DNA from: Bacteroidaceae bacterium
GTDB taxonomy: Bacteria; Bacteroidota; Bacteroidia; Bacteroidales; Bacteroidaceae
Direction: 5' to 3'
DNA: 34,138 nt
NCBI GenBank assembly: GCA_017447625.1
Contig: JAFSNB010000009.1
Coordinates: 1 to 34,138 of the forward strand
A program made the position numbers and the translations under genes. Below are positions 147-32,958 of the stretch, one piece after another. The notes beneath the pieces were generated by a model. It did no database searches. It was not told the DNA's origin and was given only the letters and a program-made list of their open reading frames with translations. How positions within the stretch are numbered: the stretch's first letter is position 1; every line of letters starts with the position of its first letter.

Positions 147-848
147 TCATTTCTCTATTTGAGGGAACGATGCGAATAAATCCAGAGCTTGTGCGGTCTC
201 CTCAATAAGTTTGGTTTTGATAAAGGTTTTGGTTCGCGTGTCATCAACGACCTCGCCCAATCCCTGCATCAGTAGCTTTGGACTTGCTTCGCGGACTCGG
301 ACTGCACACCAATTGGCATATTCGGATACAGATTTTCCTGTTCTTTCCATGATTATCGTTTCGTTGATATTGGCATGTAGCTGCTGCAAGAAAAACCAGA
401 CATCGAAGACATCGCGCGGAGACAGTCTTTCGCCCATTGCACATAGCTTGTGTGCAAACATATCTGCGGTTCTTAGTACGCGGATGTCCGTGCCTGCCAG
501 TGTGCGCATTTCGTAATGATTGTCAAATTGTCGCGTAGAGATCTCCACCTTCAGCATCCGTTCACCCTTGCCGTAGTTGAGTACAAGAATGGGTCCAAAC
601 TGTTTCTTGGCTTCATCGTCAATGGTGCCGAATCGTAGAAGAATCTGTCGCACTTTGGCATAAACGATATCCAGTTTGTCTGTATCCAACAGGTTAAAGT
701 CTAAATCTGTAGAGAAACGTGGCAGGTTGTGGAAGAACATAAGTGCCGTACCTCCTTTGAAGCCCAGAACATTGCACAGGTCCTTATCTTTGAAGATGAG
801 ATTCAATATCTGAGCCATATACAGTTTATGTTTTTGCTTGTCCATCAT
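147..848 (-). CDS. AbiEii-type nucleotidyltransferase toxin
   Basis: This is a 233-residue protein of the AbiEii/AbiGii nucleotidyltransferase toxin family. The visible signature is KGGTAL at residues 31-36 followed by RFSTDLDF at 44-51, the glycine-rich and Asp-x-Asp motifs that bind NTP and metal. A conserved-looking ADMFAHKLCAMGERLSPRD stretch lies further on. Family members are cytoplasmic toxins of type IV toxin-antitoxin systems, and some act as abortive-infection phage defence. The start is the first of two adjacent ATGs (846-848), 3 bases after the stop of the upstream AbiEi-like gene, so the two are almost certainly co-transcribed. The length is somewhat short for the family, but the catalytic core is complete. 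The family call is confident; a role in phage defence here is inferred. Confidence 0.88.
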   Translation of the reverse strand: MMDKQKHKLYMAQILNLIFKDKDLCNVLGFKGGTALMFFHNLPRFSTDLDFNLLDTDKLDIVYAKVRQILLRFGTIDDEAKKQFGPILVLNYGKGERMLKVEISTRQFDNHYEMRTLAGTDIRVLRTADMFAHKLCAMGERLSPRDVFDVWFFLQQLHANINETIIMERTGKSVSEYANWCAVRVREASPKLLMQGLGEVVDDTRTKTFIKTKLIEETAQALDLFASFPQIEK

Positions 849-16452: not shown

Positions 16453-19400
16453 ATGAATAGACTGAAACTTACCTCTCTTCTTGCTTTCCTGTTCTTCTTC
16501 TTTGCAGGAATTGCTTGGGCTGTGCTTGTGCCAGACTCTGATCCCGATGAGAATCGGTTGGCGAGTGTGCAGGACGGGGCGCAGTTCTTTATACGTTCGG
16601 AACGCAGAACGCAGGATGTAAACTGGACTAACGGATACCGTTGGATCGCATTGCGCACGCCATACGAAGAAGGTAAGGAACTGCCAATAACGCTTGAGAA
16701 CGACGGCACGCAACTGACCGATGAGGGTTTGTTCACCGTTGAAGCCACAGGCTCGCAGGTGATAGCGTCCGACAACAAGAGCTACGATGCTTTTTATATC
16801 AAAAACGTAAAGTGTGGCAAGTACCTGTCTGTCGCTGCCACCTCAGGCGACGCAACTTTCCTCCGTTTTACCGATGAAAAGTCCTCTGCTGTGGTGTGGG
16901 GTTTCCGTCCGGTGGCCGCAAGTGAAGATGAGGCCGACGAATACAACACCGGCAAGTGGTTTATCTTCACCATCACAAATAATGGCGAGTTCTATCTCAA
17001 TGTCGGAGATCTGGATTACAACGGCATAAAGACTCCGTTTTACGGCCCGTGGGCTGATATGCCGGGCTGGTTTGACCTGATTCCGCCTGAAACGGCCGAG
17101 GCAGACCTCATAAACCAGCATCTGAAACTGTACGAGGATGCGATGGCTTACGGAAATACCGATGACGACGGGCATTATGTGCTTTTGGGCGGTATCGGAG
17201 GTTATAGCGATGAGCTTATGCAGGAATACTATGAAGTGATGTTCTATAACACCGACGACCTTATGGACATGGAGTTTAAGGGGCAGACGGTGGATTGGGA
17301 AACCAGCATTGCAAATCTCGAGGCGATGATAATAAAGCTGCAGAACGCAGTACCGCAGATGCCGGCCGATGGCTATTATCTTATCGTAAGTGCCTACAGT
17401 CCCTGGTCGAACGAGTCAAACTATCGTGCCATATATGCCAAGAAGGATGTGGTTTATTGGGGTGAACTGGGTGAGAACGCCACCAACCCCGCTTATATAT
17501 GGAAGTTCACGAAGAAGGAAGACGGCACTTACAGCATCCAGAACCTTGCTGAGGGCCAGTATTTCACCGCCTGTGTGAATAACGGCGCTGCAAAACTCAC
17601 TAATGACGCTGATTTCGGCGCACAGATTCATCTGTTGGGCAACGGACAGATGAATATCCAGGTGGGCGATGGCGGCGGAGGTAACTATGTTCACCCGAAG
17701 GGACACAGCGGCGGCACAGGAACTCAGGGAACAATAACCGGCTATCCGGGCGGCAAGGACTCGCAGAGTGCGTGGCGTCTGATTGCGGTAAGTGAGGATG
17801 TCTATGGTCCTTACCTGGAACAGATGCAGCGTATGCTGGAGATGCAGGAAGTGCATAATGAACTGACTGAGCGCATCACAGCCGTCCGAAGCGCATCCAA
17901 GGCCGCCTTCGAGTACGAAGTGCCGGCAGAAGCAGTCAACGTAACCCCGCTTGCGGCTGCTGACTTCGAGAGTAACTCCGCTATGAGCGCAGAACATGGG
18001 TTAAGCTGGGGCAGCGACGGCCAAGGGTTCGGCGCCCTGATCGACGACGACTACAGCACTTGGTTCCACACCTGCTGGACTTCATCTGCCAGCGAAATAA
18101 ACTGGACCGCCTACAACCCCGACGGCACACCGGCCGAGGGCGCAACCCAGACCACTCTGCATAACCTCAGCATGAAACTCAGTCAGCCCGCATCTGATGT
18201 CTCTTTCCAGGTGTCGGCACGCAAGGGCGGCTACAACAATCCGACCAAGATTGATGTGGAGGTGAGCGCCGACGGCATCCACTGGACCACGGTGTTCTAT
18301 GGCTATGACTTCTTCACACCAACAACTCAGGCCGAGAGCCCGTATATCATGGGCCCGTTCGATCTGGGCGGCTCATACGAATATGTCCGTTTTGCCAACT
18401 ACGGCAACGACCGCAACGCCGACGGATCTCGCTTCTTCTGCTTCTCCGAACTGAGAGCGTATTCAGGTGTCCGACTCACGAGCACCTGTCAGGCATCAAC
18501 TATGGACCAGACCATAGTAAGCAACTTCCTCGCTGCCTATTCGGCTGCCAACAAATATGTTGATATGCCTACATACGAGGAACTGGAAGATATGCGCACC
18601 GCGCTCTCAAACCTCAATGCGGCATTTGAGGCGTTCAAGAGTGCATTTGCCGACCCGACGGATTTGAAATCTCTCATTTCAACGGCCCAAAACGTTATTG
18701 CCAACTACAAGGTCGGCGAGGGTACAGTGGGCCTCTACGACGGTTCTCTGAGTACAGATAATCTCGAAACAGCAATAAGTAATGCTATAGATGTCCTCGA
18801 TGCCGGCTTCTACACACAGCAGACCCTGAAGGACGAGGTCGATAAGATCAATACCGAGTTGGAGCGTCTGAACGCAACTGTAATCCAGCCCCGTACGGAC
18901 AAGTGGTACCAACTCGTATTCCCGTCGGAAGAGGAATATGATGAGAATCCATCTTGGGATAAGGATAATGTGCAGCACAACGGCGAGGGTGAGCTGGCCC
19001 TCTTCAGCCGCGTGGCTGCTATAATGGACGGCGACGACTCCACCCCGTTCGAGGATATCGAGGCTCTCCGCGAGAGCGACAACCTGCATCTGTATCCTGT
19101 GCACGAGAGCACGATAGCAGATGCGCCGGAAGTCAGCTACTTCCGCTTTGTCCCTGTGAAGGATGGTTATGCCCTGCAGAACAAGGCCACGGGCTTGTAT
19201 ATCGCTCACATGAAACAGAGTGCCCACGCCGCTATGAGCAGCTGGCCGGGAGTCTATAAACTCCAGACTTTAGGTCAGGGATTCAGTATTCTGCAGAGCC
19301 ACGACTTCAAGACGGGTGAGTACGAGAACGGTACAATCCAGTTCACTTGGAACGGGAATATCATCGTGGGCTGGGTTGATACGGAAATCGGCACGAAGGC

Positions 19401-20097
19401 AAGCATACATATCCGCGAGGTTGATGTCGATTTCGACGGCGATCCGGTTATGCGCCGCTCTGCTGTTGAGGAGCAAGCCTTCGGTCTGACCCTTGCCGCC
19501 AACGTGACGCAGCTGAATGGTGCTGAAGCCTATGTTCCTGCCGGCATATACTATGATGAAACGGGAGAGGAGGCCGTCACATTTATAGGTCTTAAAAAGG
19601 TTGAGGCCAAAGATGGTAATATCATCCAACCCGGACAGCCCGTAATAGTCTTCCCTGACGATGAAGTGGTGGAATTTACACTCGGAACCCAACTCACTGA
19701 CAGTGCTCTTTGGGAGAATTCCCTTTGCGGCACCTTTCAGCGCATAGCCGCAATCGAGCCCGGAAGCGCAGCGTTGCAATATGATGAAGACGAGGATCTG
19801 AATTACTTCCAAGTCACCGGCGGCGCCATACAGCGCAGCGTGAATGCCTTCTCGGCTTATCTGGCTCTTCAGGATGGCGATGAACTGGCCGTTTGTGAGC
19901 GTCAGTCCGATTGCGATGTGTGGATTTTGCTTCGCGGGAAACTCAATGGCGCGTCCGTTATGCCTGTAGGCGCAGATTGCCCGTTGAATGGCGACGTTTA
20001 TGACATTGCCGGCCACAAGGTAGGTACGGCCAAGTCAATAAGCTCGTTGAAACGCGGTATTTATGTAGTCAACGGAAAGAAGATAATAATAATGTAG
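16453..20097 (+). CDS. large secreted discoidin-domain protein with T9SS-type C-terminus
   Basis: This 1214-residue exported protein has a signal peptide at about 1-23 (ending GIAWA). Residues about 35-470 contain repeated beta-rich segments that look like beta-trefoil/ricin-like modules (YYLIVSAYSP..., YSIQNLAEGQYFTAC...), a resemblance only. An F5/8 type C (discoidin) domain spans about 500-675, with DDDYSTWFHTCW near its start and EYVRFANYG. A helical FIVAR-like part (about 690-810) and another beta-rich module follow. The last 45 residues (NGDVYDIAGHKVG, LKRGIYVVNGKKIIIM) look like a type IX sorting domain. It probably binds glycans at the cell surface; no catalytic domain is recognised. 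Its TAG stop is the first triplet of repeat copy 2, and a sensor-fucosidase gene follows. Confidence 0.85.
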   Translation: MNRLKLTSLLAFLFFFFAGIAWAVLVPDSDPDENRLASVQDGAQFFIRSERRTQDVNWTNGYRWIALRTPYEEGKELPITLENDGTQLTDEGLFTVEATGSQVIASDNKSYDAFYIKNVKCGKYLSVAATSGDATFLRFTDEKSSAVVWGFRPVAASEDEADEYNTGKWFIFTITNNGEFYLNVGDLDYNGIKTPFYGPWADMPGWFDLIPPETAEADLINQHLKLYEDAMAYGNTDDDGHYVLLGGIGGYSDELMQEYYEVMFYNTDDLMDMEFKGQTVDWETSIANLEAMIIKLQNAVPQMPADGYYLIVSAYSPWSNESNYRAIYAKKDVVYWGELGENATNPAYIWKFTKKEDGTYSIQNLAEGQYFTACVNNGAAKLTNDADFGAQIHLLGNGQMNIQVGDGGGGNYVHPKGHSGGTGTQGTITGYPGGKDSQSAWRLIAVSEDVYGPYLEQMQRMLEMQEVHNELTERITAVRSASKAAFEYEVPAEAVNVTPLAAADFESNSAMSAEHGLSWGSDGQGFGALIDDDYSTWFHTCWTSSASEINWTAYNPDGTPAEGATQTTLHNLSMKLSQPASDVSFQVSARKGGYNNPTKIDVEVSADGIHWTTVFYGYDFFTPTTQAESPYIMGPFDLGGSYEYVRFANYGNDRNADGSRFFCFSELRAYSGVRLTSTCQASTMDQTIVSNFLAAYSAANKYVDMPTYEELEDMRTALSNLNAAFEAFKSAFADPTDLKSLISTAQNVIANYKVGEGTVGLYDGSLSTDNLETAISNAIDVLDAGFYTQQTLKDEVDKINTELERLNATVIQPRTDKWYQLVFPSEEEYDENPSWDKDNVQHNGEGELALFSRVAAIMDGDDSTPFEDIEALRESDNLHLYPVHESTIADAPEVSYFRFVPVKDGYALQNKATGLYIAHMKQSAHAAMSSWPGVYKLQTLGQGFSILQSHDFKTGEYENGTIQFTWNGNIIVGWVDTEIGTKASIHIREVDVDFDGDPVMRRSAVEEQAFGLTLAANVTQLNGAEAYVPAGIYYDETGEEAVTFIGLKKVEAKDGNIIQPGQPVIVFPDDEVVEFTLGTQLTDSALWENSLCGTFQRIAAIEPGSAALQYDEDEDLNYFQVTGGAIQRSVNAFSAYLALQDGDELAVCERQSDCDVWILLRGKLNGASVMPVGADCPLNGDVYDIAGHKVGTAKSISSLKRGIYVVNGKKIIIM

Positions 20098-20310: not shown

Positions 20311-23300
20311 ATGGTGTTTCGAAGACTAATTGTAATAATTGCTGGGGTGCTGATGTGCTGCGCTCCTGTCGCAGCCCAGGAGGTGCAGAAAGAAATCCGC
20401 GCTTTCGAAAGCCACATATCCAAGGGACAGATAAAAGAAGGTGTTGAGTGCGCCACAAGAGCGGCTGCCATCTATTATGGCGGTACAAACTACCAGGAGG
20501 CGTTCGATCTCTTGCGGCTCGCAGACCAAGCCATAAACTCGTCAAAGCTGAGCGAGAGTCAGCGTGCAGGCCTGCGTTACCTCACGACCAAGGAGCGTAT
20601 GCTGATGTACAAGCAGATGAACCGCGGTGCTAAGGTCAAGGAGCAGCTCGATATCATGGAGGCTCAGGTGGCTGCCTCGCACGATGAAGAGCTTAAAAGC
20701 GACCTCCTGTATAATCAGGCAGTTTATTATTACTCTTTCGGACAAACGTCCAAGGGTAATGCTGTACTGAAGGAGATGACGGCCCGACTGACTACCAGCA
20801 AGAACTACGACAAGGTTGATGACGTCTATAAGACTCTTATTGCCAACGCCCGCAGATCCGGCAACGGGTTTATGGTCGCTCAGGCCTACAGCAACTATAT
20901 CGCTTGGAAGGACTCTGTCGATGCGCTGAAAGTGGCCGATGAAATCGGGGCTTTGAAGCAGCAGATAGCCGACGGAGAGGCACTCGTGGCTGAGAGAGAC
21001 AGCCAACTGTCTTCACGCCGTGCTGTGATAGGCGGCCTGATGGTTCTGGTCGCTATCCTGGCGGCTGCGTTGGTGCTCGGAGCTATCGTTTTACTCCGTT
21101 TTATCGTGCTTACGCGCAAGCAGAAGAAGGAGATTCGCATGGCGAAAGAGGACATCGCACTCAAGGCAAAATTCATCGGAAACATATCCGCACAGATAGC
21201 TCCAACGCTTATGAAACTGAACAGTGCAACGCCCGAGGTGCGTGCGCTGATGGATTTCACAAATCACATCCAGACGTTGTCGCAGTTGGATAAATTGGAT
21301 TCCAGTGAATTAGAGCTTGAGGACACCCAGTTGCAGCCGTTCTGCGAAAGCCTGATGGACGAGATTCGCGACAAGGTCAAGGGCGGCGTGACCCTTTCCG
21401 TCAACGCTCCGAAGATGAGTGCTAAGATCAACCGAGAATACGTCTCCCGCATACTCAAACACCTGCTTGAAAACGCAGCCGAGTTCACTCCCGCCGGAGG
21501 CAAGATCTGGCTTGACTTCAAGAAACGCAGTGCGCAGACGGGACAGTTCCAGGTGTCGGACACCGGAGAGGTTATACCGGAGGAGAAGCGCGAATCGGTG
21601 TTTATGCCGTTTGTGGAAATCCGCGACCTGACCAAGGGTGACGGCCTCGGCCTGCCCATCTGCTACAAGATGGCGAAACACATCGACGGCGAACTGGATA
21701 TAGATCCGGAGTTCACCAAAGGCACACGCTTCGTCCTGAAACTTAAACATCTGGCCACGGTGCTCCTGCTCCTGATGGTTCAGACTGTCGCCGCAGCCGA
21801 CAAGGCTGACCAGCGGACAGAGATGCTGCGCTACTACGAGCCGGCACGCATCTGGGTTGAGGCATTGCCTGTGGGCAACGGACATATCGGGGCGATGGTC
21901 TATGGAGGCATCGACCGCGAGGAGATTCAGCTGAACGAAGGCTCATTCTGGGGCGGCGGCCCTCACCGCAACGATTCCGAACGCGCACTGGAGGCTCTTC
22001 CTCAGGTGCGCGAACTTATTTTTAAAGGCCAGAACAAAGAGGCTCAGGATCTGATGGACCGCACGTTTATGTCCGGCCGCAACGGAATGCCATATCAGAC
22101 TCTTGGAAGCCTGATCATAGAGAACCTCACCAGTTCTAATCCCAAAGAGATAGAGAACTACTCCCGCACGCTCGACATCTCAAATGCCGTAGCCACCACC
22201 CGATGGACAGACAATCGCGGCGTCACATTTACCCGCGAGGTTATCTCCTCGCTCACCGACCGCGTGGTAGCCATTCACATCACGGCTTCCACAGCCAAAC
22301 AGCTCAATTTCCGCCTAAAGTTCAAGTCACCCTTGGACATCCAGCGCAGTCACAGTCTGAAAGGTCTTGTGATGAAAGGCGCAGGACGTGACCACGAGGG
22401 CGTGAAGGGCGTGGTTAGGATGCACACCGAAGCCCGTGTGGACGCTATGGGCGGCACTCAGGAACTCACCGACAGCACCCTCACCGTAAAGAACGCCACC
22501 GAAGTAGTTATCTATGTCGGAGCCGCCACGAATTTCGTGAATTACAACGATGTGTCCGCCAACGAGTCCGACCGCGTTGAAGCTATGCTCCGACCCGTTA
22601 TCGGAAGGCAGTGGCCGCTGTTGCTCACAGACCACCAGAATGCCTATCGCCGCTATTATAGCCGCGTTCATCTGCATTTGGACGGTTCTACGGCAGAGGC
22701 TGACACGATGCAGACCGACCGCCGTGTGGTTCGTTTTGCAGCTGGCGAGCCCGACCCCGCGCTGCCGGTCCTGATGTTCAACTATGGCCGCTATCTCCTT
22801 ATTTCCACTTCGCAGCCGGGCGGACAGGCTGCTGGCCTGCAAGGTCTGTGGAACAACGAACTGCTTGCTCCGTGGGATGGTAAATATACTATTAATATTA
22901 ATACGGAGATGAACTACTGGCCCGCAGAGGTGTGTAACCTGAGCGAGATGACTAGGCCGCTCTTCAGTTTGATTAAGGACCTGAGCCAGACGGGACGCGA
23001 GACGGCCCGCGTGATGTACGGAGCCAAGGGCTGGGTGGCGCATCACAACACCGACATCTGGCGTTGCACGGGTTTGGTCGATGGCCCCTTCTGGGGAGCC
23101 TGGCCAATGGGTGGCGCCTGGCTTACAACCCATCTCTGGGAACATTGGCTCTTTACCGGCGACCGTAAGTTCCTCGCCGATGCCTATCCCATGATGCGCG
23201 GAGCCGCCGAGTTCCTGCAGGACTTCCTCGTTCCGATACCAGGGGGCAATTACCTCGTTACCTGTCCGTCGGTTTCTCCGGAACACGGACCCAAGGGCGA

Positions 23301-24156
23301 GTGGGGCGTTCCCGCCGTTTGTGCCGGGCCCGCTATGGACACTCAGATTGTTCACGACGTCCTCAGTCAGACCATTATGGCGGCCAACACCCTTGGCATA
23401 GACAAGGCCTTCGCAGATTCTCTCAATCAGACTTTAAGCCAGCTGCCCCCGATGAAGATTGGCCGATTCGGACAGCTGCAGGAGTGGCTCGAAGACGCAG
23501 ATCGCGAGGATGACCACCATCGTCATGTCTCACATCTCTACGGCCTTTATCCCAGCCATCAGATATCCGCCTCTTCCAGCCCCGACGCGTGGAAAGCCTG
23601 CCGCGTATCGCTCACAGCCCGAGGTGATGAGGCAACGGGGTGGAGCATCGGCTGGAAACTGAATCTCTGGGCACGCCTGCTGGATGGCAATCACGCCTAC
23701 AAACTGGTTCAGACTCTGCTGAATCTCCTGCCGTCAGACCGCGATGGCCGCCGCTTTCCTGCCGGTCGTGTCTATCCGAACCTCTTCGATGCGCACCCGC
23801 CTTTCCAGATTGACGGTAACTTCGGCTTCACAGCCGGTGTGGCAGAGATGCTGCTCCAGAGTCATGAGGGTTTCATTCGCCTCTTGCCCGCTCTGCCGGA
23901 TGCGTGGCCTTCGGGTGAGGTGAAGGGCTTGCGTGCCCGCGGCGGTTTCGAGGTCGGCGTAGAGTGGAAACAGGGCGCTCTCATCCGCGCCTCCGTGCGC
24001 AGTCTGCTCGGTGGGCAGGCAGTTATCCAGTTGCCGAAAGGCGGTAATCCTGAAGTTAAGACCTCCGACGGCACGACCGTTCCCTCAAAGGTAAATGCCG
24101 CAGGCCAGCTGGAATTCAACACAAAGGTCAACACAACTTATATTATACAAACATAA
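20311..24156 (+). CDS. histidine-kinase-like sensor fused to GH95 alpha-L-fucosidase
   Basis: One open frame of 1281 codons carries two proteins. Residues 1-23 are a signal peptide, about 25-230 a TPR-like sensor region, and about 238-263 a membrane helix. About 275-330 is a DHp-like helix whose phosphoacceptor position reads NISAQIAP (Ala294 instead of His). About 350-478 is an ATPase domain with [19 protein letters not shown] and [12 protein letters not shown]. Without a stop it continues through a hydrophobic stretch (481-496, [16 protein letters not shown]) into a full GH95 enzyme (about 500-1281). Expected catalytic residues are present: Asn862 and Asn864 in [13 protein letters not shown], Glu991 in CPSVSPEH, Asp1168 in IDGNFG. 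GH95 enzymes remove terminal alpha-L-fucose (or L-galactose). No ATG near the junction offers a separate GH95 start. A permease gene follows after 3 bases. Confidence 0.85.
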
Positions 24157-24159
24157 ACC

Positions 24160-25251
24160 ATGTTCAATCAACCAATAACCTTCGACAGCTTCATCCGCTC
24201 GATTTGCTATCTGCTGCTTTTCGTCTGCGGAATATACGTGCTGGATATGTTGAGCGGTGTGCTGCTGCCTTTCTTCATCGCTTGGCTGCTGGCATATCTC
24301 ATGTATCCTCTAGTGAAATTCCTTCAGTATAAATGCCACTTGCGCTGGCGAATATTGGCCATCGTCGTGGCGTTCATCATTGTTTTGGCGGCTCTGAGCG
24401 CCCTCGTCCTTTTGGTGGTACTCCCAACCATTGAGGAGTTCTCCAAACTGAGCGGCCTAGTGTCTCAGTTCAGCCAACGCTACCTCAGCGACACCAACGT
24501 GGCTCCGTACGTAGAGCGCTTCCTTGCGGAGTTCCGCGAACAATACCACACCGAATTGATCAGTCTTATTCATCAGGATAATGTGCTGAATGCGTTGCAG
24601 TCGGTATTCGGCTATTGCTGGGATTTCCTTGCCGGCACAATAAACTTCGTCATCGGTCTCGTCGGATCAATCATCGTACTTCTGTATATGTTCTTCATCC
24701 TGCAGGACTATGAGAGCATCACACAGGGCTGGATAGAGTTTATCCCGAAGAAACGCCGCCCGTTTGCAGCCCAGCTCGTTGCCGACGTGGAGAGCGGCAT
24801 GAACTCCTACTTCCGCGGTCAGGCCACGGTGGCTTTCTGCGTCGGAGTGCTTTTCAGCATCGGTTTCCTCATCATCGGATTCCCTATGGCTATCGGTCTG
24901 GGAATGTTCATCGGTTTCCTCAACCTCGTACCCTACCTGCAGACGGTCGGTTTTATCCCGACAATCCTGCTTTCGCTGCTGAAAGCGGCCGATACGGGCG
25001 AGAACTTCTGGTGGATTCTTATTCCCGCACTCATAGTCTTTGCTGTTGTTCAGAGCATCCAGGATCTCTTTCTCGTTCCGAAGATTATGGGCGACGCCAT
25101 GGGCCTGAATCCGGCTGTCATCCTACTCTCGCTGTCCGTCTGGGGTTACCTGTTGGGATTCATCGGACTTATCATCGCACTGCCCCTCACAACCCTTGTA
25201 ATTTCCTATTATCGGCGCTTCGTTTTGGAAGATAACGACGAAGAGACGTAA
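24160..25251 (+). CDS. AI-2E family transporter (PerM/TqsA-like permease)
   Basis: This 363-residue membrane protein has about seven to eight transmembrane helices in the pattern of the AI-2E/PerM family. There are paired N-terminal helices (10-50), one at about 64-88, a soluble loop (about 90-150), then helices from about 150 to the C-terminus. The C-terminal motif LVPKIMGDAMGLNPAVILLSLSVWGYLLG is typical. Members export diverse small molecules or ions; the substrate is unknown, and quorum-signal transport should not be assumed. It starts 3 bases after the fusion gene's stop, so the two are likely co-transcribed. The stop is followed by A-runs and the tRNA-Lys promoter. Confidence 0.9.
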   Translation: MFNQPITFDSFIRSICYLLLFVCGIYVLDMLSGVLLPFFIAWLLAYLMYPLVKFLQYKCHLRWRILAIVVAFIIVLAALSALVLLVVLPTIEEFSKLSGLVSQFSQRYLSDTNVAPYVERFLAEFREQYHTELISLIHQDNVLNALQSVFGYCWDFLAGTINFVIGLVGSIIVLLYMFFILQDYESITQGWIEFIPKKRRPFAAQLVADVESGMNSYFRGQATVAFCVGVLFSIGFLIIGFPMAIGLGMFIGFLNLVPYLQTVGFIPTILLSLLKAADTGENFWWILIPALIVFAVVQSIQDLFLVPKIMGDAMGLNPAVILLSLSVWGYLLGFIGLIIALPLTTLVISYYRRFVLEDNDEET

Positions 25252-25903: not shown

Positions 25904-27055
25904 ATGTTCGAGAAATCAGTTAAACTGGTCTTTGACCGCAAAAAGAAACCAACGAAAGACGGCCTTGTGACCGTAGAGATTCAGCTCTGTGTATCAAGAG
26001 ATTGTAGGAAGTACATTTCCCTTGGTGCTACTCGTGCTACCACCCCAGAGGAACGTGCTACCTATACTGCGAGGGAGGACGTTCAAGAGCATTTACAAAA
26101 GTATGTCAATGTGCTGGAAGCTATGCACATGCTCGGTGAAGAAATGACGACAGCCAACCTTAATGCACATCTTGGTATAACACCAAAGGAACATCTGACA
26201 AAGAAAGAAACGGCTATCCCGTTTAATGGTAATTTCATTGATTTTATGCATGATTCCATTATGTCTGAACGTATTGAGGAAAGCACCCGGAAAGTCAGGA
26301 TTGTCACATTAGATTCTCTCGTTGAGTTTGGGAAAATTAGGAAATTCCAAGATTTGACAGCTGAAAATATCCGTGCTTATGATGCCTGGCTACGAGAAGA
26401 TGGTACACGTTGTGATGTCACCATTGCTGGCTATCATAAAAGGGTGCGCCATTATGTAGCAGAAGTTTATGAGAGAGGATGGATAGATCGTAATCCGTAC
26501 AATCTCTTTACTTATCCCCACGGACATCATCGTGAGCGCAAACCTTTGACTGAAAAAGAATTGAAGAAAATGCAATCCCTGGACTTGCCATCAAAGGAAG
26601 CCAAAGCCCGCGACCTTTTCATTTTCTCTGCATATACTGGGCTTGCATATTGTGATGCACAGAATTTTGACTTTGAGACAATGACAGAACAGATGGGGGA
26701 TATGTATTACATTGATGGCAGCAGAATCAAGACTGGCAGCAATTTCTTTACCCCCATCTTTCCGCCAGCGATGGAAGTTTTGAAACGGTACAATTATCAT
26801 CTTCCGAGATTGAGCAATCAGAAAATGAACGATTATCTACACCTCATTGAGAGTCGTTTGAAACTAAACAAGAATCTGACTTCTCACATTGCCCGTCATT
26901 CATTTGCAACTATTGTTTTGGCACATGACGTTCCTATTGAGAATGTGGCAAGGATGCTTGGACACAAGAATATCCAGACCACTCAGATATATGCAAAGAT
27001 CCTGAAATCAACAATTGTCCGTCACGCAAACTCTCTCAAAGGGGTATTCAAATGA
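25904..27055 (+). CDS. tyrosine recombinase / integrase
   Basis: This 383-residue site-specific recombinase has an N-terminal arm-binding part (about 1-90), a SAM-like core-binding domain (about 105-205) and a C-terminal catalytic domain. Catalytic residues are His328 and Arg331 in SHIARHSFAT, His354 in MLGHKN and the nucleophile Tyr363 in TTQIYAK; RIKTG holds the likely Lys. The first catalytic Arg is missing: the motif reads AYTGLAYCD with Ala248, as in several Bacteroides integrases of the IntDOT type. It points away from tRNA-Lys, which is the likely integration target. Its stop overlaps the 3' end of the convergent tail gene by 8 bases. Codon use is less GC-rich than in the host genes, in line with a mobile origin. 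Confidence 0.93.
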   Translation: MFEKSVKLVFDRKKKPTKDGLVTVEIQLCVSRDCRKYISLGATRATTPEERATYTAREDVQEHLQKYVNVLEAMHMLGEEMTTANLNAHLGITPKEHLTKKETAIPFNGNFIDFMHDSIMSERIEESTRKVRIVTLDSLVEFGKIRKFQDLTAENIRAYDAWLREDGTRCDVTIAGYHKRVRHYVAEVYERGWIDRNPYNLFTYPHGHHRERKPLTEKELKKMQSLDLPSKEAKARDLFIFSAYTGLAYCDAQNFDFETMTEQMGDMYYIDGSRIKTGSNFFTPIFPPAMEVLKRYNYHLPRLSNQKMNDYLHLIESRLKLNKNLTSHIARHSFATIVLAHDVPIENVARMLGHKNIQTTQIYAKILKSTIVRHANSLKGVFK

Positions 27056-28889
27056 GCTTGTAGAACACCCCTTTCATCTTCCGCGACATTCCATTTTCCG
27101 TGAATGTCGCGGTTATTTTTTCACAGATGTAACGGAAGCCGTCAATATGGAAGATGGCTCGTGGATTAGGTACGTGGTCAGACAGGAAGGAGAATGTATA
27201 TTTCTTCTTCAAGTCCACGTTGTATGCCGGATAGTTGATGGCATCCCGCCCATCGAACCGCAGGGATGACGGATATTGCCTATAATGCCAGTTGGCATCT
27301 ATCATTATTGTATCCACCCAGGGCATCGGCACCTCGTTCTGCGGCACCTGTCCATCCCAATAAGCAAGGTATATCTTATCGTAGTATTCCTTCACCCCCT
27401 GTTTCTCCCCCTGTGCAATCATTGCCAGCGGAAACGGATTTACCAGCTTGGAGGCATCGTTTGCTCCAAGATTGTCCTCTGCCGTCTCGTCGTAGTTGTT
27501 CATCTGTAGGAACAGCATGAAGCCGTGTTCCGCGTCCGTCTCATCCAGCCATGCGGGAACCATCTTCAGCTCATCGACCTTCTCATCCTCTTCACCCGTC
27601 ATGCTGCGGTCACCGAATATATTGATGGGAACCGGAGCATAGTTGCGAGAATAGACCCAGTATGAGCCACTTGGCTGCACATCCCCATTCTGAACTACCA
27701 CCCCTTCCCTCGTCACCATCGACGTATTGCGGAAAGCGAAGTACGTATCCACTGAGCGTACATAGTGGATGGCGTTGATGAGCTGCATGTTCTCTTCCTG
27801 TTCCTGACTGTCGTTATACTGCATGATCAGCGTATGCAGGTCATGGCAGGTACTGAGGAAATCGCTCATCGTCGCGTATGTCCTCACCCTGTCCCACAAT
27901 GTCCTCAGCACCCACGGGCTGGAATAATACTTCCAGGCATTGTGGTCACAGTCTGCAAACTGCCTTTTCCTTGCAGGCAGGAACTTTTCATTTTTCTCCG
28001 AGGAAATATCCACCTTATACTCATCAATGACCGTATCGATGACCTCATCATACAGCTCATGTATGATGCTGGCCGTATATTTGAACGTCACCACCTTGTT
28101 CTTGTGGTCGATGTCAAATTCCGCATTCAGCAGCCGTTCAATCTGACTGAGCAGTTCTGTTATGCTCCAATGCGGCATCGCTCGGGCAAATGAATACACT
28201 TCCCATGCCCCGGGCAGTGTATTACAGATGAGGATAAACCGATGGTACGACTGTTCCCAATCCGTAAAGTCGTAGGTATATCCCATCGCCATCAGGATCT
28301 GCTTGACGGCATAGATAAGGAACGGCTGGAAAGACAGGCGCATCGAGTTCTGTCCGTTGCCGTATCGATATACCCAGGTGTAGTTCCCATGGTCGCCATC
28401 ATACCTTGCTTCATTCTGTATGTTGCCCGAATAGCTGTTCACCCACGGCAAGGCTGTATAGGTGATGAAGTTATCTCTTATCGCCCACACTTGGCCGGGC
28501 GCGAAGTTCCTTGCCAATCCTCTCGGGTACTGGCCCCACTCAAATTCATTGATGAAGGTATTGTCAAAAGTACGCTCGAAGTTCTGCGCCGATCGTCCTT
28601 CCAGAAACTGCGTCTTCACCTCCTTCTCCGTTACCTCCGTGATGGTGACAACCCCGCTTCGGTACAGCGAGCCGTGCATCAGGACACAGTCATATACCGT
28701 TGTGTCCTTTGCCACATCCTTTCGGTCAATGTTGCCAAAGATGGCGCGGTTCTGCGGACAGTCAGCCAATGGGAATGTCATTGTCAGCGTGTAGCTGTCC
28801 GAACCCGTGAAGAGTCTGTTTTCTGAAATATAATCGAAGCTGCTTCCTTTCTTCAGGATGGCTTCCTTGTCATCTATCAGTATAGTCAT
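27048..28889 (-). CDS. prophage tail-associated protein, function unknown
   Basis: This 613-residue protein lies directly after the tape measure gene (40-base gap, same strand), the position of distal-tail or baseplate proteins. The N-terminus (MTILIDDKEAILKKGSSFDY, then SDSYTLTMTFPLADC) looks like a beta-rich structural domain such as those of Dit-like proteins. The rest has no motif I can name. There is no signal peptide. It ends 8 bases inside the convergent integrase gene, so no further tail, fibre or lysis genes follow on this strand. A phage structural role is inferred from its neighbour and general resemblance to Bacteroides prophage proteins. Confidence 0.7.
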   Translation of the reverse strand: MTILIDDKEAILKKGSSFDYISENRLFTGSDSYTLTMTFPLADCPQNRAIFGNIDRKDVAKDTTVYDCVLMHGSLYRSGVVTITEVTEKEVKTQFLEGRSAQNFERTFDNTFINEFEWGQYPRGLARNFAPGQVWAIRDNFITYTALPWVNSYSGNIQNEARYDGDHGNYTWVYRYGNGQNSMRLSFQPFLIYAVKQILMAMGYTYDFTDWEQSYHRFILICNTLPGAWEVYSFARAMPHWSITELLSQIERLLNAEFDIDHKNKVVTFKYTASIIHELYDEVIDTVIDEYKVDISSEKNEKFLPARKRQFADCDHNAWKYYSSPWVLRTLWDRVRTYATMSDFLSTCHDLHTLIMQYNDSQEQEENMQLINAIHYVRSVDTYFAFRNTSMVTREGVVVQNGDVQPSGSYWVYSRNYAPVPINIFGDRSMTGEEDEKVDELKMVPAWLDETDAEHGFMLFLQMNNYDETAEDNLGANDASKLVNPFPLAMIAQGEKQGVKEYYDKIYLAYWDGQVPQNEVPMPWVDTIMIDANWHYRQYPSSLRFDGRDAINYPAYNVDLKKKYTFSFLSDHVPNPRAIFHIDGFRYICEKITATFTENGMSRKMKGVFYKLI

Positions 28890-28929
28890 ACCTTAAATCT
28901 CTTACGTGCGCGTGTGAGCGAATCATTAA

Positions 28930-31900
28930 TTATCTCTGTGCGCGCGGTGTCTTGTTCCGCATCAGGTTATCATATTCCTCCTGAGCCTGTTTCGTCCCCT
29001 TATCCCCTTCAACCGTGTTGACGGTGACAAACGGCTCATTCAGTCTGCGGTTTAGCTTGTCAATAGCCGACGAATAAGAAGCGATGGCCGCTGCCGTTGC
29101 CGCCATCGTCTTCTGCAAGCGTCCGTCCGTGCTCTGACTGGCAATGACAGCCGGAGCCGTTATAGAGCGCGAGACATCTTCACTGCGCAGTGTACCGATT
29201 GTGTTGGTTCTCTGCGCATAGTCCAGCGCATCAATCATCGGACGTGCCACTGGCGAATTGACCAGCGCCTGTGAAGCCACCCATTCCCCTGCATGGACTA
29301 CGCCAACTTCCATGTCCTTCGGTCCCATGGGCGTATAGCCACCTTCGGCATATCCCTGTGCCTCCGATGCCTGTTGCTGTTTCTTGATGGCCGCTATCTG
29401 TATAGCACCTGCAGCCACGGCCATAGCCGCTGCAATAGGTGCCAGGATATAGCCAATCATAGGCACTTGTGCCGCAGAACTGTAGGCATTGATAGCCGCC
29501 ATCGCCGTCTGTGCCACGGCCTGAATCACCTGCATGGCAAACATCTTACGGTTTGCCTCGTTCTTCATCTTGGCTATCTCGTTTTCTTTCTCCCGTTCCA
29601 GTTTCTTCACCTTGTACGTATTCCCCTCGGCAAAGGAGATTTCAGCATCGTAGCGACGTGTGATGGCCGCAGTCTGTATCTCCAATTCAGACTGTATGAT
29701 GTCCGACAGTCCGCTGAAGATGCTGCTCATGCCTGACACAATCGTATCGAAGCTTTCAAGTATGGCCTGCCCTCCGTCCGAGTCCATCCATTCGACCACC
29801 GCCTGTGTACTCTTCTGCATTCCATTCAGTTCTTCCCCGCCATACTTGCGTATCAGTGCAGCCTTGGCTTTCTGATACGCCTCTTCGATGCGCAGTTTCT
29901 CCTTGGCATTGTTTCCGGCAAGGCGTATCTCATCCTGATACACCTGCTGCAATGCCGCCAGATCCTGGGACAATGCCTGCTGCCTCTCTGCGAGGTTCAA
30001 ACCGAAATAATCCTTCTTGATTTTCTCTAACTTCTGCTGGTGTTCCTTCTCTTTCTGCTCATACTCCCTGCGTCTGCGCTCGGCATCAGCCAACAGCTTA
30101 CTATGATAATCCTTCTCAGCCTGTAGACGTTCCTTCGTTCCTTCCTGATAGATGTTCACGACCTTGCGGGCATGTTCCAGTTCCAGCATCTGAAGGGAAC
30201 TCTGGTACGTCTTGGTATCCATTTCCCCATCAATGTACCGTTGCTGAAGGGCTATCCGGCTTTCTTCGTATGCATCATCCTCTTCCTTTCGGGTACGTTT
30301 CAGTCCCGCTTCCGTCTGCGCTCTCAGCGCTTCATAGTAGTCAGCCTCTATGCTGATTCTTTCCTGATCCGTGAGGTCTGTATGTTCCAGCTTCTTGCGG
30401 TTGAACTCCACGGCTATCTCTTCGAGGCGTTTCTGGTACTGTTCATAATCAGCTTCGCCCTTGGCGTAGGCAATTCTGATCAGTGCCTCTTCCCGCTCTT
30501 TCCATTCCTTTTCCTTTTTGAACTTGTCGCGGTTCTTCTTGTCATCCGTGTCATCACCACCGCCACCATTTCCTCCGTCACCCCCTTCACCATTTCCTCC
30601 GCTCGCCTTTACTGCATTAGCCTGGTCTGCAAGGGCTTGGTTCTGTGCCGTGAGGTCATCAATGATACGGTTCAACTGCTTCACTTCCTTTTCAGCCTCT
30701 TTGAGCTGAGACCGGAACACCCGATAAGCCGTAGGTGAAGCGTTAGCCTTACCTGCTGCTTCATCGGGATTCAGCCCTTCAAGGTGTTCGTACAGTAGTG
30801 CATCCTGAAGGTTTGTCGGAGCCTCCTTCTGTATCTTGCGCAGACGTTCCTCGGCCTCAGGCAGCTTTGCCAATGCCGCCTGTATCTTGGCCGTGTTCTT
30901 CAGCTGTTCCACATAGATGCCAAGCACCTCGGCGTTATGCCCTATCAGTTCCCCTTCGTCACTGAGGCTGGCGTGGTAGTCCGGGATGATACTTTGCAGC
31001 TCCTCGATGGCCTTGCGTCTGTTGTCAATGCTCAAAGTCTCATTCTCTATGGTGGACTTCAACAGTTCAATACGCTTGATGTCCTCGGACGTATTGCGTC
31101 TGGCTTCCGACTCAATATCAGCAAGCAGTTTCTGTGCCTTGCTCTGCTTATTGAACGATGAGACGATGGCCACCCCTGCTGCCACAACAGCCGCCGCCAG
31201 CAGCGCATATATATTCGTCAATGCCGCTGTGTTCTTTTTCAGATCCGTCATAAGAAGGTTCTGTTTGGCATAGTTGCCTGTCAATTTGGCCATACCCACC
31301 TGCAAGGCAAGATGAGCAGTCTTCAAATGCGTGACGACAACCTCATACGCCTTGGTAGCCGTTGTGGTGATGGTGGTCCAGGCATTGAGAGCCTTCAGTT
31401 TGATGGTACTCAGGTTCACCACTACGGCATAGGTGGCAATAGCAGCTGTTGTAGAGATGATGGCTTTGCGATGTTCCGAAATGAACGTCACCGTGGTACT
31501 GAGGAAGCGCAGGGTCATGGATGTGGAGGTATAGATATGCTTCATCACCGGAAGAAGTTTTTCTCCCAGCTCCACAGCCAGCTCATTGACCCGCTTCCGT
31601 GCTTTCTCGATACCTGCCTGTGCCGTGTTGTTCTGAATGTCGTACATCTGTGTGACCTTGGTCGCACTGTCGAAGGCCTTCTGTGCCTCTTCCTGTTCCC
31701 ACTTCACCATATCAATGTTATTGGCCAGCGTAGCCATAACCTGTGAGGCACGTGCTCCGTTTTCACCCATGTCCTTGAACACGGGAGCCAGTGCGTCCAT
31801 GTTGCCAATCTCCTTGAAACGTTCAAGAATCATGATAAAGCCAGCGTTGGCATCCTCAGCCATGACCTTCTTGAACTGCTCCGCATTCAGGTTCAATGCC

Positions 31901-32958
31901 TTGGCAAACTTATCACTCTCCTTGTAGGCATCCATAATCAGCTTAGACACAGCCGTAGCCGACATCTCCGCTGCCTGTCCGTTTGCATCAAGGACGGCAC
32001 CGATGGCGATAAGCTGCGGCAGTGTCATCCCTGCTGCCTTACCCACACCACCCATACGTCGTGCGAAGTTAGCCAGGTACTCACTTCCAGCCGTACAGTT
32101 CTGGGACAGCTCCGTTATCGTTGAACCGATGGCCAACAGCGCTTGTTCCGTGCCAAGTTCATCCTTGATACCGAAGATGCTACTCAACTTGGAGAGGACA
32201 AGTGTTGCCCCGTCACCGATGTCAGCGAGGGCTACATTGATCTGGTCGGCACCCCGGACATATCCCATGATATCCTCAATTGTCTTCATGCCCAGCTTAC
32301 CTGCATCCTCAGCGTACTTATTCAGTTCGATGAGCGATGTTCTGGTGTTCATCTTCTTCATCTCCTCGTTCAGCTCCTTGACCTTTTCCATTGGCAAGGA
32401 AGTGAACTTCTGGACGTTGGCCATCTCCTGTTCCAGTTCCGCGTAGGCATTCACGGCCGAGCGTCCGGCCATGACAAGGCCAGTCACTGCAGCTGCTGCC
32501 GTGGCGATGGTTGCTCCCCATTCGTTGAAGCCCCGGTTCAACCGTTGCAGCAGGGATTCCGACTGTCTGAGTTCCGCGTTTACGCGGTCAATCTCAGCCT
32601 TAACCCGCTGTATCTTTTGCACCTGGATATTCCATGCTTCGCTGTCCCGCTCTATTCCGTTGAGCTGGCGGCGAAGCACTGTCAGGGTCTGATTCAACTG
32701 CTTGGGTGTTGCCCGGTCCAGGCGTCGCATGACATCTTCTGCCGATGCCGTTGCCGACTGAATCTGTTTGATTTGTGCGTTGGTCTGGTTGAGTTCCTTT
32801 TGGAGTCGTTTCAGCGTGGCCTTGTCCCCGCTGCGACGGGCTTTGTCAATGGCCGCTTCCAGCTGCGTGGCCTTCTGTTTGAGGTTATCCAACATCTCCT
32901 GAGCCTGTCGGCCATTGACAGTGAGGGTGACTGTTGCGTTTGTGTTGAGTTCGGACAT
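28930..32958 (-). CDS. phage tail tape measure protein (TP901 type)
   Basis: This 1342-residue protein determines tail length. Residues about 1-140 are coiled coil. About 165-440 is the TP901-type core (YAELEQEMANVQKF, EDAGKLGMKTIEDIMGYV, LSQNCTAGSEYLANFARRMG, MTLPQLIAIGAVLDANGQ). About 500-610 has hydrophobic helices, and about 625-760 coiled coil. A Gly/Asp-rich linker (about 780-800) leads into a long coiled coil to about 1110. A hydrophobic stretch near 1200-1230 and the C-terminal tail follow. It is intact and of normal length for long-tailed siphoviruses. A TAnnTTTG promoter lies just upstream. Upstream there is non-coding tandem-repeat DNA instead of the usual tail-tube and chaperone genes. 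Confidence 0.93.
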   Translation of the reverse strand: MSELNTNATVTLTVNGRQAQEMLDNLKQKATQLEAAIDKARRSGDKATLKRLQKELNQTNAQIKQIQSATASAEDVMRRLDRATPKQLNQTLTVLRRQLNGIERDSEAWNIQVQKIQRVKAEIDRVNAELRQSESLLQRLNRGFNEWGATIATAAAAVTGLVMAGRSAVNAYAELEQEMANVQKFTSLPMEKVKELNEEMKKMNTRTSLIELNKYAEDAGKLGMKTIEDIMGYVRGADQINVALADIGDGATLVLSKLSSIFGIKDELGTEQALLAIGSTITELSQNCTAGSEYLANFARRMGGVGKAAGMTLPQLIAIGAVLDANGQAAEMSATAVSKLIMDAYKESDKFAKALNLNAEQFKKVMAEDANAGFIMILERFKEIGNMDALAPVFKDMGENGARASQVMATLANNIDMVKWEQEEAQKAFDSATKVTQMYDIQNNTAQAGIEKARKRVNELAVELGEKLLPVMKHIYTSTSMTLRFLSTTVTFISEHRKAIISTTAAIATYAVVVNLSTIKLKALNAWTTITTTATKAYEVVVTHLKTAHLALQVGMAKLTGNYAKQNLLMTDLKKNTAALTNIYALLAAAVVAAGVAIVSSFNKQSKAQKLLADIESEARRNTSEDIKRIELLKSTIENETLSIDNRRKAIEELQSIIPDYHASLSDEGELIGHNAEVLGIYVEQLKNTAKIQAALAKLPEAEERLRKIQKEAPTNLQDALLYEHLEGLNPDEAAGKANASPTAYRVFRSQLKEAEKEVKQLNRIIDDLTAQNQALADQANAVKASGGNGEGGDGGNGGGGDDTDDKKNRDKFKKEKEWKEREEALIRIAYAKGEADYEQYQKRLEEIAVEFNRKKLEHTDLTDQERISIEADYYEALRAQTEAGLKRTRKEEDDAYEESRIALQQRYIDGEMDTKTYQSSLQMLELEHARKVVNIYQEGTKERLQAEKDYHSKLLADAERRRREYEQKEKEHQQKLEKIKKDYFGLNLAERQQALSQDLAALQQVYQDEIRLAGNNAKEKLRIEEAYQKAKAALIRKYGGEELNGMQKSTQAVVEWMDSDGGQAILESFDTIVSGMSSIFSGLSDIIQSELEIQTAAITRRYDAEISFAEGNTYKVKKLEREKENEIAKMKNEANRKMFAMQVIQAVAQTAMAAINAYSSAAQVPMIGYILAPIAAAMAVAAGAIQIAAIKKQQQASEAQGYAEGGYTPMGPKDMEVGVVHAGEWVASQALVNSPVARPMIDALDYAQRTNTIGTLRSEDVSRSITAPAVIASQSTDGRLQKTMAATAAAIASYSSAIDKLNRRLNEPFVTVNTVEGDKGTKQAQEEYDNLMRNKTPRAQR

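What the first reader, a model, noticed from the sequence alone, without database searches (positions are those of the whole stretch)
20311..24156. Sensor-kinase-like protein fused in frame to a complete GH95 fucosidase
A TPR/ATPase sensor and a full-length GH95 enzyme share one 1281-codon frame. The join is at residues 478-481, exactly where the kinase domain normally ends (GTRFVLKL) and where a GH95 signal peptide would begin ([16 protein letters not shown]). No ATG is present at the join to start the enzyme alone. The old signal peptide could serve as a second membrane helix and put the enzyme in the periplasm beside the TPR sensor. A glycosidase tethered to the sensor of its own product would be a new arrangement. 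The simplest alternative is a recent deletion or a one-base sequencing error, since an out-of-frame TAA lies at 21744-21746.
Basis: partly seen in the sequence, partly recalled or inferred. Interest (0 to 1): 0.82.

Follow-up and report, generated by a model that had tools for sequence, protein, structure and literature searches.

The report
Kinase-like protein fused to fucosidase
A gut-type bacterium carries one gene that joins a membrane signalling-type protein to a sugar-cutting enzyme through the enzyme's old export signal; the join looks real and inherited, and may be a rare bacterial two-in-one protein that is cut apart during export.

Summary
The 1281-codon frame (20311-24156) is real as assembled: a membrane HATPase protein joined to a complete GH95 enzyme at residue 478/479, with no ATG at the join. 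A sequencing error is unlikely. The closest kinase homologue (G077, 79% identical) has the same in-frame join, LKL-KHLA plus eight hydrophobic residues, then a stop, with the GH95 gone; 28 of 28 other homologues aligned end 2 to 4 residues after LxL. No single-base indel tested gives GH95 an ATG with an intact signal-peptide core outside the ATPase domain. GH95 is flanked on both sides by genes related to one G077 contig. The join therefore probably predates the split of two species, one of which lost the enzyme. The linker has the features of GH95 signal peptides. The "sensor" lacks the phospho-acceptor His, as do the 29 relatives aligned, and has no Pfam TPR match. A second GH95 fusion (SNF2 helicase, G010) may be a one-base artefact. 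The full-length fusion is known from one draft genome; processing could not be tested.

The parts
20311..21744 (+). Membrane HATPase (histidine-kinase-like) part, residues 1-478; homologues stand alone in genus and family
20311..20379 (+). N-terminal signal peptide of the kinase-like part (about residues 1-23)
   Evidence: read by eye from the sequence; inference
21022..21114 (+). Transmembrane stretch, about residues 238-268
   Evidence: hydrophobic run read by eye; inference
21169..21210 (+). H-box-like motif [13 protein letters not shown] with no phospho-acceptor His
   Evidence: residue 294 never His in 30 of 30 rows; His position taken from the DivL alignment and the recalled canonical motif
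21439..21747 (+). HATPase_c domain (residues 377-479)
21745..21798 (+). Join: [18 protein letters not shown], internal signal-peptide-like segment without a start Met; KHLA shared in frame with G077
21826..24147 (+). GH95 enzyme, all three Pfam domains (residues 506-1279)
24160..25251 (+). AI-2E family transporter, 3 bases after the GH95 stop; homologue 83% identical on the same contig as the G077 kinase

Best explanation
A genuine, inherited gene fusion. A deletion removed the stop codon of a kinase-like membrane protein gene and the start codon of the GH95 gene downstream, in the common ancestor of this species and G077; G077 later lost the enzyme and keeps a 12-residue stub of its signal peptide. 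The product is a two-part precursor: N-terminal region outside, one membrane span, HATPase domain in the cytoplasm, then the GH95 signal peptide acting as an internal signal (positive residues KLKH inside) that carries GH95 into the periplasm. Signal peptidase I most likely cuts after AAA (about residue 496), giving a kinase-like protein with a short hydrophobic tail and a free GH95. Shown: the frame, the shared join, intact GH95 domains, signal-peptide-like features. Inferred: the deletion, topology, export, cleavage, activity.
For: Same in-frame tail in G077 (LKLKHLAILLVLFAI, then stop), with three third-position differences in the shared KLKHLA codons; 28 of 28 other homologues aligned (L125-L152) end 2 (27) or 4 (1) residues after LxL. 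DNA similarity to G077 runs 20315-21757 and 24160-25245, so GH95 is flanked on both sides by this genome's own genes. The G077 draft (86% complete) has no close GH95 (best 36% identity). Signal features lie inside the range of 116 GH95 homologues with an ATG: hydrophobic peak 3.1 (median 3.04), uncharged run 16 (median 17), n-region charge +2, A-x-A-like site (present in 103 of 116). Purifying selection: kinase part vs G077 dN 0.135, dS 1.79 over 483 codons; GH95 vs G137 72% identical over 780 codons, dN 0.22, dS not computable. Codon usage of GH95 correlates with the other window genes as the kinase part does (0.917 and 0.910).
Against: The complete fusion is seen in a single draft genome, 73% complete. 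Beyond KHLA the G077 tail has only eight residues, two of them identical, so a native kinase tail later joined to GH95 is not excluded. A GTG start at 21760 would survive any indel upstream of it with the core [12 protein letters not shown] intact, so a split with a GTG-started enzyme is not excluded by that test; the codon is CTC in G077. GC of GH95 (0.577) is above that of its direct neighbours (0.515-0.531), though within the range of the window genes checked (0.515-0.585). In yeast, longer stretches before a signal sequence lower signal peptidase cleavage (PMC8277137, abstract and passages), which would favour an uncut tether. No reads, transcripts or proteomics were available.
Confidence: 0.5

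Rival explanations
1. Uncut tether: the linker serves as a second membrane span and holds GH95 in the periplasm beside the N-terminal region.
For: Topology is consistent (KLKH before, acidic residues after); yeast data show less cleavage of signals behind longer N-terminal stretches.
Against: The uncharged stretch is as short as in GH95 signal peptides and carries an A-x-A site; the sister species lacks the enzyme and keeps the kinase part, so the coupling is not required there; phospho-His absent.
Confidence: 0.22
2. Neutral or failing fusion: the frame is joined but export of GH95 is poor and the enzyme is on its way out, as in G077.
For: G077 lacks GH95 at this very place; only one intact example.
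Against: GH95 domains complete, motifs conserved against solved relatives, 780 aligned codons with dN 0.22 to G137.
Confidence: 0.13
3. Sequencing or assembly artefact: two separate genes joined by an indel or a chimeric contig.
For: Draft metagenome-type assembly without reads; in G010 a comparable GH95 fusion can be explained this way; a GTG at 21760 could start the enzyme if the frame were broken upstream.
Against: Same join in a second species. Of 324 single-base indels tested at 21661-21822, 20 leave or create an ATG with an intact core, all of these ATGs inside the ATPase domain; none gives one at the join. Both flanks match one G077 contig. Longer indels were not tested.
Confidence: 0.08
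4. Internal translation start: a free GH95 is made from a non-ATG codon at the join (for example a CTG or GTG), next to the fused product.
For: CTG stands just before AAA CTT AAA at the join and GTG at 21760.
Against: No ATG there and no AT-rich leader (by eye); 116 of 120 surveyed homologues were scored with an ATG, two had none and two could not be scored; the GTG is not kept in G077.
Confidence: 0.07

Closest known systems
Bradyrhizobium fbcH cytochrome b/c1 precursor (recalled; no paper seen; searches and look-up 41 did not retrieve it)
   Same: One bacterial gene gives a membrane protein and an exported protein separated at an internal signal peptide
   Different: There both halves belong to one complex; here the partners look unrelated and cleavage is untested
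GH95 enzymes of Bacteroidota (closest solved 4ufc; then 7kmq)
   Same: All three GH95 domains, conserved [14 protein letters not shown] and DGNFG motifs (motif roles recalled)
   Different: Lacks its own start codon and hangs on a kinase-like protein
DivL-type pseudokinases (4q20)
   Same: Best solved match of the ATPase half, E 2.2e-10; His replaced in the H-box
   Different: Ala at the site, not Tyr; only the ATPase region aligns well; remote similarity
SNF2 helicase-GH95 frame in G010
   Same: GH95 of the same 13-row clade, signal peptide core retained, no in-frame ATG at the join
   Different: Different partner; one-base changes would explain it

Membership tests
GH95 | N-terminal, catalytic and C-terminal Pfam domains in order | tested here: met
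   226, 577 and 97 bits
GH95 | Conserved active-site motifs (roles recalled) | tested here: met
   [19 protein letters not shown] kept against 4ufc and 7kmq
GH95 | Alpha-L-fucosidase or alpha-L-galactosidase activity | not testable with these tools
   closest homologue, in G137, lies two genes from fucP, suggestive only
Sensor histidine kinase | HATPase_c domain with N, G1 and G2 boxes | tested here: met
Sensor histidine kinase | Phospho-acceptor His in a dimerisation domain | tested here: not met
   residue 294 is Ala; no His there in 30 of 30 rows, though one row has His one residue on; no HisKA match
TPR protein | TPR repeats recognised by Pfam | tested here: not met
   only HATPase_c at E up to 0.1
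Bacterial polyprotein with internal signal peptide | One frame, internal signal-peptide-like segment before an exported-type domain | tested here: met
Bacterial polyprotein with internal signal peptide | Cleavage into two proteins | not testable with these tools
   needs proteomics or blots

The most novel reading that the evidence does not exclude
A His-less kinase-like membrane protein and a periplasmic glycosidase work as one uncut two-faced protein, the enzyme feeding or reporting its product to the attached receptor.
Probability: 0.15. Interest if true: 0.75.

Novelty: new variant of a known kind. Interest (0 to 1): 0.45.

Why it matters
If the precursor is cut, it is a rare bacterial example of two unrelated proteins made as one chain and separated by signal peptidase, showing that a signal peptide can keep working deep inside a long protein and that neighbouring genes can fuse without losing the exported enzyme. 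If it is not cut, it is a glycosidase physically bound to a signalling-type membrane protein. In both cases the G077 stub gives a natural comparison with and without the enzyme.

Tried and rejected
One-base error at the join: judged unlikely for the window, from the shared G077 join and the indel tests, with the GTG caveat told in the Against line. Chimeric contig: unlikely, since both flanks match one G077 contig and codon usage agrees.

G010 as an independent confirmation: set aside, because 12 of the single-base removals tried both end the helicase at 774 residues and give its GH95 an ATG with an intact signal core. Separate neighbours exist in G138 and G114 (the helicase was confirmed by Pfam in G138 only).

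Other long GH95 frames (L012, L086, L156, L162, L163): ordinary, with an ATG before a signal peptide; L047 and L164 are joined to secreted N-terminal parts (L047's partner recognised by eye only). The long-frame loci were picked from the cut list.

Solved-structure searches were run with the two halves. Paper searches (15 of 54 and 10 of 47 papers listed) showed no kinase-GH95 fusion. Papers were seen as listings with the start of abstracts, except PMC8277137 (outline, abstract and 12 passages). No structure prediction was run because it would not decide cleavage.

Full report
What is there. The frame 20311-24156 codes for 1281 residues without a stop. Pfam finds HATPase_c at 377-479 and the three GH95 domains at 506-1279. 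The join reads [27 protein letters not shown]; the GH95 has no ATG ahead of its signal peptide. The AI-2E transporter gene starts 3 bases after the GH95 stop.

Is it an error? The window genome (G000) is a draft in 46 contigs, 73% complete. A genus search covered 139 genomes. The closest homologue of the kinase part, G077:C81, is 79% identical and its frame ends GTRFILKLKHLAILLVLFAI, then stop. The codons for KLKHLA agree in frame, with three third-position differences. The other 28 homologues aligned (L125-L152, the next best) end 2 residues (27 of 28) or 4 residues (1 of 28) after the LxL. So among the 30 aligned the tail is shared by these two species only. Of 324 single-base indels tested at 21661-21822, 20 leave or create an ATG with an intact signal core, all inside the ATPase domain, and none gives one at the join; an in-frame GTG at 21760 with the core behind it exists in the assembled sequence and would survive indels upstream of it, so it is a loophole, but it is CTC in G077. 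Longer indels were not tested. DNA similarity to G077 covers the kinase (20315-21757, 75%) and the transporter (24160-25245, 77%) but not the enzyme, and the G077 draft has no close GH95 (best 36%). In G077 other genes lie between the two flanks. I read this as fusion in a common ancestor followed by loss of the enzyme in G077. The weaker alternative, a native hydrophobic kinase tail joined to GH95 only in the window lineage, is not excluded.

How unusual is it? Of 399 family genomes (drawn evenly from a larger group) 78 have a homologue of the kinase part at E 1e-30 or better; only the window's lies in a frame long enough to hold a GH95 as well (the next longest, 760 codons in G240, comes with a stop inside the match). 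Of 121 loci given to a GH95 survey 120 matched; 116 were scored with an ATG-started N-terminus, two lack one (G010 and a secreted multi-domain protein, L164), two could not be scored. The choice of ATG was mechanical, so L047, whose GH95 follows a secreted part, may be among the 116, and the set is not a random sample: it holds the best matches plus frames picked for their length.

The G010 case. In G010 a GH95 of the same clade is joined in one 1609-codon frame to an SNF2 helicase; in G138 and G114 the two genes are separate neighbours. But 12 single-base removals at that join would both end the helicase at 774 residues and give the GH95 an ATG with an intact signal core, so I do not count it as a second proven fusion.

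The enzyme. The closest GH95 is that of G137 (72-73% identical; sister in the tree with ultrafast bootstrap 91 and SH-aLRT 95, short of the tool's star). It is followed by an aldo/keto reductase, fucP (556 bits against a cut-off of 280) and, further on, a tagaturonate reductase (595 against 359), which hints at L-fucose or L-galactose use. Motifs are conserved with 4ufc and 7kmq. GH95 dN to G137 is 0.22 with dS not computable; kinase dN and dS to G077 are 0.135 and 1.79.

The 'sensor'. Only HATPase_c is recognised, no TPR and no HisKA. The H-box reads ISAQ; the column aligned with the phospho-acceptor is Ala in 23 and never His in 30 aligned sequences, while the next residue is Gln in 28, His in 1 and Tyr in 1. 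The position rests on a weak alignment to DivL and on the recalled motif. ATP-binding motifs are largely kept. The best solved match is the pseudokinase DivL. So classical phospho-signalling by this protein alone is doubtful, and this holds for the family, not just for the fusion.

Mechanism. The linker matches GH95 signal peptides in peak hydrophobicity (57th percentile of 116), uncharged length (16; median 17), charge and A-x-A site; no dedicated signal-peptide predictor was available. Orientation fits a cytoplasmic HATPase domain and a periplasmic enzyme. A cleaved precursor is therefore favoured. Against cleavage, yeast work found that signals behind longer N-terminal stretches are cut less, and less hydrophobic ones more (PMC8277137); bacterial signal peptidase may differ. 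The bacterial precedent fbcH is recalled, not retrieved.

Verdict. Paper searches of the open library showed no report of this fusion in their listings; that library is partial.

Noticed in passing
20311-21744 and relatives L124-L152: A membrane HATPase family, found in 78 of 399 family genomes, has no His at the phospho-acceptor position in the 30 members aligned while largely keeping the ATP-binding motifs: a pseudokinase-like family.
   Followed up: partly
25904-32958: Phage-type integrase followed by a 613-aa protein and a tail tape-measure protein: a prophage or its edge begins just past the stretch shared with G077 (ends 25429).
   Followed up: partly
27048-28889 (-): 613-aa protein with no match in Pfam, NCBIfam or PHROGs at E 0.001, between integrase and tape measure genes.
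   Followed up: no
L027 about 1050-1310: In G077 an array of roughly 30-base repeats (read by eye) lies about 200 bases after the kinase stub, near the place where the enzyme is missing.
   Followed up: no
16453-20097: 1214-aa protein with a signal-peptide-like start, a weak ricin-type lectin match and a sorting-signal-like C-terminus (by eye), just upstream of the fusion.
   Followed up: no
L165 5249-10075 (-): SNF2 helicase and GH95 in one frame in G010; explainable by one-base changes.
   Followed up: partly
147-848 (-): AbiEii-type nucleotidyltransferase with a 192-aa neighbour (852-1430) without a Pfam match, possibly a type IV toxin-antitoxin pair.
   Followed up: no
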